In this document: piece after piece, positions 9,397 through 13,986 of the stretch | Numbering within the stretch: position 1 is the first letter of the stretch | How the letters are laid out: each line of letters starts with the position of its first letter | Source of the DNA: a virus | Strand: one strand, 5' to 3' | Length of the DNA: 20,867 nt | IMG/VR virus record: IMGVR_UViG_3300021425_000233 | Location: 1 to 20,867 of that record | Program-made: the position numbers and the translations under genes | The notes under the pieces: model-generated | The model's input: only the letters and a program-made list of their open reading frames with translations | Database searches by the model: none | Told to the model about the DNA's origin: nothing

Positions 9397-9576
9397 CTAA
9401 CTTGCTTGCTTGTCCCACCAAAGTTCTAAGTTGAAGTAGACTCTTCGCTTAAGTAGGGTAAAAAATCTAGTAAATGTGAAACCTTTTCCCTTAGGAGCAG
9501 GTTCCTCTTCTGCTTCCTTCTTTTTCGCCCCCCTAAGCATGAGCTCTATGCCTCTATTTATTTTAAAATCTTTCAT
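9397..9576 (-). CDS. Small basic protein after glutaredoxin
   Basis: A 59-residue protein found by direct translation. Its start overlaps the glutaredoxin stop (ATGA). It begins MKDFKINRGIELMLRGAKKK, passes through a Glu/Pro linker and ends in an amphipathic aromatic strand (FTFTRFFTLLKRRVYFNLEL then WWDKQAS). Similar short proteins with an aromatic F/W-rich end occur in cyanophages. Function unknown; the aromatic-basic end could associate with membranes. Confidence 0.7.
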   Translation of the reverse strand: MKDFKINRGIELMLRGAKKKEAEEEPAPKGKGFTFTRFFTLLKRRVYFNLELWWDKQAS

Positions 9577-9824
9577 TTTTTCTTAGATGATACAAGATCT
9601 TTTTGCAAGAATAATTTTGCTGTCTCAACCAAACCTCCAACACTTTCCCCATCTATCATAACATGAGGAAACCCATAAACATCTGGAAATTTTTCTTTAA
9701 ATTCTTCTCTAGTAATATCAGTACCAACAGTAATGATAGTTGAATCTACTTGTGCTCTTTGGAATAGTTCCTTAAGTTTATCACAATAGAAACATCCTGG
9801 CGTAGTGTAAGCAACAATTTCCAT
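9573..9824 (-). CDS. Glutaredoxin-like protein
   Basis: An 83-residue thioredoxin-fold protein of glutaredoxin length. The active site is C11-F-Y-C14 in a TTPGCFYC context. The cis-Pro strand GFPHVMIDGESVGG (about 52-65) supplies the substrate-binding loop. A likely role is to provide electrons to ribonucleotide reductase for dNTP synthesis, as T4 NrdC does, but the partner is not in this window. It is coupled to the methyltransferase gene before it (TGATATG) and to the small ORF after it. The lysine-rich tail SSKKK is not typical of the family. Confidence 0.88.
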   Translation of the reverse strand: MEIVAYTTPGCFYCDKLKELFQRAQVDSTIITVGTDITREEFKEKFPDVYGFPHVMIDGESVGGLVETAKLFLQKDLVSSKKK

Positions 9825-9825
9825 A

Positions 9826-10800
9826 TCAAATAAATTTTTCTAAGGGAGAAGTTGTAGCAGCAATTCTGTCTTTAATAATCTGACAGTATTCTTCTGAGTA
9901 TTCAACCCCAACGGAATTGAATCCTAGTTCTTTTGCTGCAATAAGAGTAGTGCCGCTACCAGCAAACGGATCATAAACAGTTCCACTCTTTGGTGTAATG
10001 AGTTTGATAAGGTACTTCATCAACTCAAGATTCTTCACAGTAGGGTGATCATTTTTGATAGTTCTGTTATGAGTTCTCTCTTTTACAGAACTCTTAGTAG
10101 AGTAGAAAAATCTACTAGCGGTTCCAGAATCACAGTAAGTGGTTTCGCCAATGTATCCACCCCCACCAAAGACTCCACCGCCATACTGCCTACCTTGATA
10201 GTCTTCGACTCCATAGTTCCTAGACCATCCGTTACCACGGTCTCCAAACTTAGCAAACTGTTCTTCTACCTCTTCACTACCATCGTGTAGAACATTACCT
10301 GGCCAACGTCCAGACTCTAAACGAGTATCTTCAATGTTAATACCACCAACACCATGAGTTTGGCAGTTCTTTACAATAGTCTTCTCTTCAATTGGTTTCT
10401 GAGCAAGAAGAATAGGTTCATAACATGGTTTGAGACCAGTCCCCCATCCTTCCCATGCAGGATCTTTCTTACCAATATTCTGACTCTTTGGCATACCCTG
10501 TCCATACAACCACATCAGAACATCTTTGATCTTAAGACCAGAATCTTCTACAGCACAAACAAGTCTATGAAATGTTTTAGAAGCACCAAAAATCAGAAGA
10601 TGTCCCCCAGGTTTCAGAGTTTTGGCAATAGACTGCCAGGTCTCTACCTTAAAAGCAACACAATTCTGATATGAATCCCAACCATTACCTAGGTACTCAA
10701 TACCATATGGAGGATCAGTTACAACAGAATCAAATAGTTCTCCACTATAGTTGTTTGAGAAGAGAACACAATCATCATTATAAAATTCAGAGGTAGGCAT
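9826..10800 (-). CDS. Site-specific DNA methyltransferase (amino-methyl, beta-type order)
   Basis: A 324-residue enzyme from ATG 10800 (GGAG 7 nt before). The catalytic motif IV DPPYG is at 29-33 and the S-adenosylmethionine motif DPFAGSGTT at 277-285, i.e. catalytic motif first, as in beta-class N6-adenine or N4-cytosine methyltransferases. The central region (about 100-240) holds GWGTGLKPCYEPILLAQKP and GRWPGNVLHDGSEE, seen in many phage and bacterial relatives, and a Gly-rich insert that may belong to the target-recognition region. It overlaps the putative endonuclease gene by 14 bases. It could protect phage DNA from host or from the neighbouring enzyme. Confidence 0.9.
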   Translation of the reverse strand: MPTSEFYNDDCVLFSNNYSGELFDSVVTDPPYGIEYLGNGWDSYQNCVAFKVETWQSIAKTLKPGGHLLIFGASKTFHRLVCAVEDSGLKIKDVLMWLYGQGMPKSQNIGKKDPAWEGWGTGLKPCYEPILLAQKPIEEKTIVKNCQTHGVGGINIEDTRLESGRWPGNVLHDGSEEVEEQFAKFGDRGNGWSRNYGVEDYQGRQYGGGVFGGGGYIGETTYCDSGTASRFFYSTKSSVKERTHNRTIKNDHPTVKNLELMKYLIKLITPKSGTVYDPFAGSGTTLIAAKELGFNSVGVEYSEEYCQIIKDRIAATTSPLEKFI

Positions 10801-11440
10801 CAAAGGTCTCCTGGCGTTGTTTATGTTGTTCTTCTTTCAGTTTGATATGACTGATAAAAGCATTGTTGTCAATCTCTTTTAATTTTAACACAATATCTTT
10901 CTTTGTGTTATCAAAGATTACATTAGGATCATAGTTAGCAAAGAAGTGACTTTCTTTTAGCATGACTTGACCAGTACCATAATTATAATTTACATAATCA
11001 AGGTAATCATAAAGATTAAACAGATAAGTTTTAGTAGTAAGACTATCTTTTGTCTTACCCGAAACATCAATAACAAAAATCCAATAAGAATCAATCAGAC
11101 CAGAACAATAGTTTTTGTAAAGGCGATTGAACGAAACCATGTTGGGCTGACCATTGCCTTTCTCATATCCAAGTTTAATATTAATCAAATCTCCATTGGG
11201 TTTCCAAATAAGATCTTCCATTTTTCTAGTTTGCTTTCCTCCACCCTTGACTTTCTCAGGCAGAGAAAACTTATCTGGATATTTTTCTACTAATTTTTCT
11301 GCCAAAATCTCCTCAACCTTTTCTCCATAACTATGCCCTGGTTCCTTAACGGTAGGATCAAAACCAGATTCCTCCAGGCATACAGGAAGAAGTTCCTCCA
11401 CACAGGCAAGGATAAATTGACGCTGCTCTTGGGAGATCAT
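10787..11440 (-). CDS. Putative type II restriction endonuclease, partner of the methyltransferase
   Basis: A 217-residue soluble protein. A helix with Glu40 and Glu43-Glu44 precedes a strand pair MEDLIWKPNGDLINIKLG (74-91). This resembles a PD-(D/E)XK core with Asp76 and Lys89, but Asn87 stands where Asp or Glu is usual. The later part, LFNLYDYLDYVNY and GTGQVMLKESHFF, resembles what I recall from some type II endonucleases. Its 3' end overlaps the methyltransferase start, the usual layout of a restriction-modification pair. This is a fold-level inference without any alignment. It starts at ATG 11440, with no Shine-Dalgarno sequence, 20 nt after the predicted transcript start. Confidence 0.6.
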   Translation of the reverse strand: MISQEQRQFILACVEELLPVCLEESGFDPTVKEPGHSYGEKVEEILAEKLVEKYPDKFSLPEKVKGGGKQTRKMEDLIWKPNGDLINIKLGYEKGNGQPNMVSFNRLYKNYCSGLIDSYWIFVIDVSGKTKDSLTTKTYLFNLYDYLDYVNYNYGTGQVMLKESHFFANYDPNVIFDNTKKDIVLKLKEIDNNAFISHIKLKEEQHKQRQETFDAYL

Positions 11441-11441
11441 T

Positions 11442-11465
11442 AAAAAAGGGGGTTCAAGACCCCCT
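11442..11465 (-). terminator. Intrinsic terminator after psbD
   Basis: Minus strand: GGGGG (11464-11460), T11459... pairing to CCCCC (11452-11448), with an extra A-T pair at each end and a five-base loop, then six T (11447-11442). The U tract ends two bases before ATG 11440 of the next gene. The 5' arm overlaps the start region of a promoter. Confidence 0.85.
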
Positions 11466-11466
11466 C

Positions 11467-11495
11467 ATTATAGTTGGATTTCTAATAAATGTCAA
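11467..11495 (-). promoter_or_regulatory. Perfect consensus promoter before the endonuclease gene
   Basis: Minus strand: TTGACA (11495-11490), 17-nt spacer, TATAAT (11472-11467), a full match to the bacterial sigma70 consensus. Predicted start near 11460, inside the 5' arm of the terminator stem, so transcripts from here lack most of that arm and cannot form the hairpin. Confidence 0.9.
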
Positions 11496-11513: not shown

Positions 11514-12572
11514 TCAAAGGGCATTGCCTCTTGGCAACACCTCTTCTGGGAACACGAAGTTTTCATGAGGTTGATCCACTGGTGCCATCCAGGCACGCAG
11601 ACCTTCATTCAGAAGGATGTTCTTGGTGTAGAACGTCTCAAACTCTGGATCTTCTGCTGCTCTCAGTTCTTGAGAAACAAAGTCATAAGCACGAAGGTTG
11701 AGAGCAAGACCAATAATACCGATGGAACTTGTCCAAAGACCCATAACAGGAACAAACAGCATAAAGAAATGCAACCACCTCTTATTGCTAAACGCAATAC
11801 CAAAGATTTGAGACCAGTAACGGTTTGCAGTAACCATTGAATAGGTTTCTTCTTCTTGTGTTGGTTCAAATGATTTGAATGTGTTTGATGCTTCACCATC
11901 TTGATACAAAGTATTCTCTACTGTAACACCATGAATAGCAGAAAGCAACGCACCACCCAGGATACCTGCCACACCCATCATATGGAAGGGATTAAGCGTC
12001 CAATTGTGGAATCCCTGCAGGAATAAGAGAAAGCGGAAGATCGCTGCAACACCAAATGACGGCGCAAAGAACCAACTGGACTGTCCAAGAGGGTAGATGA
12101 GAAATACACTAACAAATACGGCAATAGGACCTGAAAAAGCAATCGCATTGTACGGACGGATACCTACTAAACGACTAATCTCAAACTGCCTCAGCATAAA
12201 TCCTATGAGAGCAAAGGCTCCGTGGAGCGCCACAAAAGCCCAGAGTCCCCCAAGTTGGCACCACCTAATGAAGTCCCCCTGAGACTCAGGACCCCAAAGT
12301 AGAAGAAGAGAATGACCCATAGCGTCAGCAGGAGTTGACACTGCTGCTGTAAGAAAATTAGCGCCCTCAAGGTAACTAGACGCCAACCCGTGGGTATACC
12401 AGCTCGTAACGAACGTCGTGCCAGTAAGCCAGCCACCAATTGCAAGATAAGCAGTGGGAAAAAGAAGTAGTCCAGACCAACCCACAAAGACAAAGCGGTC
12501 GCGTTTAAGCCAGTCATCCAGGACATCGAACCACCCCCTTGTTTGTGGAATATTTAGTGTGCTTGTTGTCAT
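11514..12572 (-). CDS. psbD: Photosystem II D2 reaction-centre protein
   Basis: A complete 352-residue D2, the standard cyanobacterial length. Redox-active Tyr160, His189 and His197 (PFHMMG) are all present, as are the [16 protein letters not shown] and [20 protein letters not shown] segments and the C-terminal PRGNAL. With D1 it forms the photosystem II core carrying the special pair, pheophytins and quinones in the thylakoid membrane. Phage D2 and D1 together are thought to replace damaged host proteins so that photosynthesis continues during infection. AAGGA stands about 7 nt before ATG 12572. The gene follows psbA, separated by a terminator and a stem-loop leader. Confidence 0.98.
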
Positions 12573-13849: not shown

Positions 13850-13940
13850 GGAAATGGTGGAGTTACTATTTCCTGTCACCCTTAGACAGGATATGAGAGA
13901 CGGATTGTTAGACCTGCCTAGTCTCGGTCAAGCGGCAGGT
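13850..13940 (-). promoter_or_regulatory. Structured psbA 5' leader with overlapping stem-loops
   Basis: Three perfect stems read in the minus-strand RNA: ACCTGCC/GGCAGGT (13940-13934 with 13918-13912; 15-base loop), CCTGTC/GACAGG (13890-13885 with 13877-13872; 7-base loop) and GGAAAT/ATTTCC (13873-13868 with 13855-13850; 12-base loop). The second and third share bases 13872-13873, and extending the third to CAG/CTG would disrupt the second, so they are partly exclusive. They lie 30-120 nt before the ATG. Confidence 0.55.
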
Positions 13941-13986
13941 GTTGAACATGTAACGAAACCTTAAAGGTCCTTTACATTTGTTCATG

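What the first reader, a model, noticed from the sequence alone, without database searches (positions are those of the whole stretch)
11442..11495. Terminator and perfect promoter superimposed between psbD and the putative endonuclease gene
On the minus strand TTGACA-17-TATAAT is followed at once by a G5/C5 hairpin and six T. The predicted start (near 11460) lies at the end of the hairpin's 5' arm. RNA coming from psbD can form the whole hairpin and terminate, whereas RNA starting at this promoter lacks most of the 5' arm and escapes. This insulates the putative restriction-modification operon from the photosynthesis genes in under 60 bases. The pairing and boxes are seen directly; the switch behaviour is inferred.
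Basis: partly seen in the sequence, partly recalled or inferred. Interest (0 to 1): 0.7.

Follow-up and report, generated by a model that had tools for sequence, protein, structure and literature searches.

The report
Promoter fused to terminator after psbD
In a marine cyanobacterial virus, a transcription stop signal and the next gene's start signal overlap so closely that RNA arriving from the photosynthesis gene should stop while RNA started on the spot should not, and the same layout recurs after psbD in many related viruses.

Summary
Confirmed. On the minus strand TTGACA-17-TATAAT (11495-11467) runs 2 nt before a G5/C5 hairpin (11464-11448) and six T, one base before the ATG of a restriction-endonuclease-like gene. 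None of 60 shuffled windows has this. Folding shows the hairpin falling from -12.9 kcal/mol (full) to 0 when RNA starts at 11460.

It is not unique to this restriction-modification (R-M) operon. Of 145 distinct psbD ends from cyanophage contigs, 42 have a sigma70-type -10 box 0-5 nt before a terminator, and 25 have a T4-type late -10 box there. Of 117 psbD ends reading TGA-TA(T/C)A(A/C)T, 112 run straight into a hairpin and T tract (56 distinct stem-loops among 110). Most of these use a -35 (TTGCCA) inside psbD: Leu346 is TTG in 89% of them against 15% elsewhere, the only one of 39 leucines that differs. The window's version is a variant in which a 41-nt insert supplies a perfect -35 and moves the terminator 49 nt from the stop codon. 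A second fusion, with the -35 in the terminator loop, is also enriched (15/80 terminators, null 1.4).

Insulation by 5'-arm truncation is the best explanation. No RNA data were available; activity is inferred.

The parts
11514..12572 (-). psbD (photosystem II D2); stop TGA 11516-11514
   Evidence: PF00124, E 1.6e-72; phage psbD homology ends near the stop codon
11476..11508 (-). AT-rich inverted repeat GGATTTTTAATAA-TTGACAT-TTATTAGAAATCC with the -35 hexamer in its loop
   Evidence: fold z-score -4.5 for the 74-nt stretch that holds both hairpins; related sequence with a partly kept repeat in L073 and L424
11490..11495 (-). -35 element TTGACA
   Evidence: 6/6; 17 nt from the -10; kept at the same place in L073 and L424
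11467..11472 (-). -10 element TATAAT
   Evidence: -10 box 0-5 nt before the stem in 122 distinct psbD ends
11460..11462 (-). predicted transcription start, inside the 5' arm of the hairpin
   Evidence: inference from -10 geometry (5-7 nt after the hexamer); fold loss on truncation
11448..11464 (-). terminator hairpin GGGGGT-CTTGA-ACCCCC
   Evidence: 56 different stem-loops at the same place among 110 relatives
11442..11447 (-). T6 tract of the terminator
10787..11440 (-). 217-aa type II restriction-endonuclease-like gene, ATG one base after the T tract
   Evidence: no Pfam, PHROG or PDB sequence match; AlphaFold model pLDDT 86; best Foldseek hits R.SwaI E 9e-7, HincII 5e-5; start conserved in relatives
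9826..10803 (-). DNA methyltransferase overlapping the end of the endonuclease gene
   Evidence: PF01555 E 3.6e-37; the pair stays together in relatives
9573..9824 (-). glutaredoxin, the gene that directly follows the psbD module in S-H9-2, S-RIM32 and S-RSM4
   Evidence: PF00462 E 2.8e-10

Best explanation
This is a compact transcription-unit boundary: an intrinsic terminator for psbD with a host-type sigma70 promoter for the next operon laid over its 5' arm. RNA polymerase arriving from psbD transcribes the whole inverted repeat, forms the hairpin and stops in the T6 tract. Polymerase starting at the TATAAT begins at about 11460-11462, so its RNA lacks most of the 5' arm, is only about 14-20 nt long at the T tract, and cannot be terminated there; it goes straight into the endonuclease gene. 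The R-M pair is thus transcribed from its own promoter and shielded from psbA/psbD read-through. Shown: sequence, fold loss, conservation of geometry across unlike sequences, and codon constraint on the embedded -35 in relatives. Inferred: promoter activity, termination efficiency, insulation.
For: Single superposition against none in 60 shuffled windows. Stepwise loss of the fold with start position. Among 145 distinct psbD ends from two scans not selected for this feature, 42 have a sigma70-type -10 box 0-5 nt before a terminator stem. Of 117 psbD ends reading TGA-TAYAMT, 112 are followed at once by a hairpin and T tract: 110 by the script's rule and two (L270, L315) by eye. The 110 hold 56 different stem-loops, and 97 have a start codon within 6 nt of the T tract. 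Distance from -10 to start codon: median 25, range 23-32, n = 98. In the no-insert class the -35 is TTGCCA inside psbD at spacing 18; Leu346 is TTG in 89% against 15% outside the class, p 7e-17, while the next largest difference at 38 other leucines is 0.07. Where a separate downstream -35 exists, as in the window, TTG is used in 2 of 8. Of 11 spacer-type ends, 6 have a -35 of at least 5/6 (5 of them TTGACA), shuffled expectation 3%. A close relative (L001) keeps TATACT, a near-identical hairpin and an 88%-identical endonuclease behind a different small gene. Class A also occurs away from psbD (L153-L155).
Against: No transcript ends were available. A start at 11464 or 11463 would leave a 5-6 bp hairpin. 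There is no Shine-Dalgarno in the 20-nt leader, so expression from this start is assumed. The codon signal is partly shared by neighbouring codons (345, 349, 351, 352), and codon 345 gives a similar independent-pairs result, so joint inheritance of the psbD end by recombination contributes. In most relatives the terminator is 6-9 nt from the psbD stop, where lambda tR2 in E. coli lost nearly all activity under translation (PMC4824070); those versions may be leaky. L002 and L003 keep a TATAAT 22 nt before the endonuclease start but have no hairpin there and are not behind psbD.
Confidence: 0.7

Rival explanations
1. Only the terminator matters. The -10-like sequence is a by-product of the AT-rich spacer and stop codon, and the next genes are expressed by read-through.
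For: The terminator shape is unmistakable. TGA followed by A/T-rich sequence can resemble a -10. Some psbD ends have a plain terminator (18 of 145).
Against: 12/12 promoter at 17 nt in the window; -10 boxes cluster 0-3 nt before stems and almost nowhere else in the upstream 60 nt; codon bias at the embedded -35; different -35 sequences paired with the same -10 phase.
Confidence: 0.1
2. Translational switch as in T4 e, soc and I-TevI: the hairpin blocks ribosome entry on long transcripts, while transcripts from the local promoter lack the 5' arm and are translated. Termination is minor.
For: Same geometry and same logic in T4 relatives (PMC2988022). The hairpin ends 7 nt before the ATG. Other copies of this endonuclease gene (L474, L475) carry a long promoter-spanning hairpin that covers an AGGA just before the start.
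Against: No Shine-Dalgarno to hide in the window's leader; GC stem plus T6 is the terminator signature and recurs with T tracts in relatives. Both effects could add up.
Confidence: 0.15
3. The hairpin is mainly a 3' stabiliser or processing end for psbD mRNA, and the promoter is a separate, weak early promoter.
For: A second strong AT-rich hairpin precedes it. Hairpins at mRNA 3' ends commonly protect them (general knowledge).
Against: Does not explain the fixed 0-3 nt phase of the -10 to the stem, or the start codon right after the T tract.
Confidence: 0.05

Closest known systems
T4 promoter-in-hairpin switches (I-TevI, I-TevII, I-TevIII, segB, soc, e; mobE of Aeh1)
   Same: Phage promoter placed so that locally started RNA lacks the 5' arm of a hairpin which long upstream RNA forms; used for endonuclease genes (PMC2988022).
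   Different: There the hairpin hides a ribosome binding site and acts on translation. Here the hairpin has a T tract and no ribosome binding site to hide, so it should act on transcription.
IS10/IS50 protection of transposase from outside read-through (from memory, not tested here)
   Same: Only externally started RNA contains the full inverted repeat.
   Different: Acts on translation, in transposons.
E. coli frd terminator / ampC attenuator overlap (from memory)
   Same: Terminator of one operon superimposed on the promoter-leader of the next.
   Different: ampC RNA contains the whole hairpin and is attenuated; here the local RNA should lack the 5' arm and escape.
Predicted sigma70 promoters, late promoters (NATAAATA) and TransTermHP terminators in cyanomyoviruses (PMC3037559, PMC2984593)
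   Same: Both kinds of element were predicted in intergenic regions of cyanophages.
   Different: In the parts read, the fixed superposition, its recurrence behind psbD and the embedded -35 are not described.

Membership tests
Intrinsic (Rho-independent) terminator | GC-rich stem of at least 5 bp, short loop, at once followed by a T tract | tested here: met
Intrinsic (Rho-independent) terminator | RNA 3' ends in the T tract | not testable with these tools
   no RNA data held
sigma70-type promoter | -35 and -10 hexamers at 16-18 nt | tested here: met
   12/12 at 17 nt; relatives keep the -10 phase
sigma70-type promoter | RNA 5' end 5-9 nt downstream of the -10 | not testable with these tools
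   no RNA data held
T4-type promoter-in-hairpin translational switch | promoter start inside the 5' arm, so local RNA cannot fold | tested here: met
   fold series, given the start predicted from the -10
T4-type promoter-in-hairpin translational switch | hairpin sequesters the Shine-Dalgarno of the downstream gene | tested here: not met
   no Shine-Dalgarno in 11460-11441; hairpin ends before the T tract
Transcription attenuator of the downstream operon | the operon's own transcript contains the full terminator hairpin | tested here: not met
   the start predicted from the -10 lies inside the 5' arm; truncated RNA does not fold
Type II R-M cassette (downstream genes) | restriction-endonuclease fold plus cognate methyltransferase as neighbours | tested here: met
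   R.SwaI/HincII fold, PF01555, pair conserved; enzyme activity untested

The most novel reading that the evidence does not exclude
T4-like cyanophages use a standard genetic part at transcription-unit boundaries, a fused terminator-promoter in at least two geometries (-10 flush against the stem so the start lies in the 5' arm; or -35 in the loop with the -10 just after the T tract). It partitions the genome into insulated units without intergenic space, and is driven either by host-type sigma70 boxes or by late boxes in the same position.
Probability: 0.45. Interest if true: 0.7.

Novelty: new variant of a known kind. Interest (0 to 1): 0.55.

Why it matters
If true, a sequence of under 60 bases gives a one-way transcription boundary in a crowded phage genome. 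That would explain how cargo genes such as photosynthesis and restriction-modification cassettes can be swapped behind psbD without inheriting each other's expression. It also makes the transcription units of cyanophages more predictable from sequence, and shows a promoter -35 written into the synonymous codons of a photosynthesis gene. It is directly testable in isolates such as Syn9 and S-PM2.

Tried and rejected
Uniqueness to the R-M operon: rejected; the module precedes unrelated genes. Known RNA family: Rfam finds only PhotoRC-II upstream of psbA, nothing at this site. Endonuclease identity by sequence: no Pfam, PHROG, PADLOC, NCBIfam or PDB match; the fold search succeeded. Genome-wide class A count: only about one per genome (the psbD end) plus two elsewhere in seven cyanophage genomes, so class A is not a general boundary; class C is more frequent. 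Control phages: 0 of 37 T4/RB49 terminators carry class C at 10/12, and only 2 terminators were found in HTVC008M, too few to use. Independent-pairs test of the codon: 11.4 concordant against 0.6, but neighbour codon 345 behaves alike, so it cannot separate selection from block recombination. First unbiased count was wrong because de-duplication removed shared class A loci; redone. No paper with Syn9 start-site mapping was found in the library.

Full report
Observation. The minus strand between psbD (stop 11516-11514) and the next gene (ATG 11440) reads TTGACA-17-TATAAT-GA-GGGGGT-CTTGA-ACCCCC-TTTTTT-A-ATG. The scan gives this as the only 12/12 sigma70 site in the 20 kb scanned, and lists the hairpin as a terminator. 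Dinucleotide shuffles of the window never give a promoter whose -10 lies within 5 nt of a terminator stem (0 in 60). With a TATAAT ending at 11467, 5-7 nt of spacing puts the start at 11462-11460. RNA begun there is also only about 14-20 nt long at the T tract, so most of it is inside polymerase (inference).

What surrounds it. The window is from a T4-like cyanophage: psbA, psbD, hli, PhoH, ThyX and gp32 are present. The 217-aa gene after the module has no sequence match in the family libraries, but its AlphaFold model (pLDDT 86, 11 sequences) matches R.SwaI, HincII and EcoRV. The next gene is a PF01555 DNA methyltransferase, and the two travel together in environmental phages. In S-H9-2, S-RIM32 and S-RSM4 the module after psbD leads straight to glutaredoxin, which in the window lies behind the methyltransferase. 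L073 has the same kind of 41-nt insert and hairpin, followed by a glutaredoxin-like reading frame. The simplest history is that the R-M pair entered between an existing psbD module and glutaredoxin (inference).

Conservation. Two scans for psbD, not selected for this feature, gave 145 distinct psbD ends: 42 with a sigma70-type -10 0-5 nt before a terminator (class A), 25 with a late-type ATAAATA there (class B), 6 with a -35 inside the hairpin and a -10 after it (class C), 18 with a plain terminator, and 54 without one. A scan for TGA-TAYAMT alone shows that 112 of 117 such ends go straight into a hairpin and T tract (110 counted by script, 2 by eye), with 56 different stem-loops among the 110 and a start codon within 6 nt of the T tract in 97. 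Sequence drifts while geometry stays.

Embedded -35. Where the -10 touches the stop codon, the -35 is TTGCCA in psbD codons 346-347, spacing 18. Leu346 is TTG in 89% of class A0 psbD genes against 15% of the rest, while the other 38 conserved leucines differ by at most 0.07. In A0, codon 346 has entropy 0.31 against 1.70 for its neighbour 345. Where a separate -35 lies downstream, as in the window, TTG falls to 2 of 8. Caveat: codons 345, 349, 351 and 352 also differ between classes, and 345 gives a similar independent-pairs result, so joint inheritance of the gene end is part of the signal.

Second geometry. In seven cyanophage genomes (P-SSM2 without its last 13.5 kb), 15 of 80 terminators carry a 10/12 or better promoter whose -35 starts inside the hairpin and whose -10 follows the T tract; shuffling the downstream bases gives 1.4 (sd 1.2), and T4 plus RB49 give 0 of 37. 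The window has one at 7339-7303. Several relatives of the endonuclease gene have one too, e.g. L024 GACCCC-TTGACA-GGGGTC-TTTTTTATTGT-TATAAT.

Mechanism. The best account is a one-way boundary: upstream RNA terminates, local RNA escapes. In lambda tR2, termination dropped below 10% when the stop codon was 5 nt away and needed over 27 nt for full effect (PMC4824070). Most class A modules lie 6-9 nt from the psbD stop and may leak when psbD is translated; the window's lies 49 nt away and should be tight. That would suit an endonuclease gene. This is a prediction, not a result.

Comparison. The logic equals the T4 promoter-in-hairpin switches used for I-TevI and other genes (PMC2988022), but those hide a ribosome binding site. 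Here there is none to hide and a T tract is present, so it works like them at the level of transcription and is not a member. Sigma70 promoters, late promoters and terminators have been predicted in cyanophages before (PMC3037559, PMC2984593); the passages read do not describe the fusion. The literature search covered open-access papers only.

Noticed in passing
window 7339-7303 (-): Second fused site: terminator AGGAGGGGTTGATACCCCTCTTTTTTT with the -35 (TTGATA) in its loop and TATAAT 17 nt on, after the T tract.
   Followed up: partly
window 11508-11476 (-): 13-bp AT-rich hairpin with the -35 TTGACA in its loop; a related sequence without the TATAAT lies behind psbA in S-RSM4 (L070 2500-2555).
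   Followed up: partly
window 10787-11440 (-): Orphan 217-aa family with an R.SwaI/HincII-like fold, no entry in Pfam, PHROGs, PADLOC or NCBIfam, found just upstream of an N6/N4 methyltransferase in many environmental phages.
   Followed up: yes
L474 and L475, about 60 nt before position 2501: Same endonuclease family behind a perfect TTGACA-16-TATAAT promoter spanned by a long inverted repeat that would hide the AGGA before the start codon on read-through RNA, like IS10 or T4 switches.
   Followed up: no
L068 382-1652 (S-H9-2), L069 376-1646 (S-RIM32): A different endonuclease-methyltransferase pair sits between psbA and psbD, so the psbAD region is a repeated landing place for R-M pairs.
   Followed up: no
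psbD ends L083, L084, L112, L127, L150 and others: Late-type box AATAAATA in the place of the sigma70 -10 directly before the terminator (25 of 145 ends), often followed by genes for similar small hydrophobic proteins.
   Followed up: partly
window 13858-13953 (-): PhotoRC-II RNA (RF01717, 61 bits) upstream of psbA.
   Followed up: no
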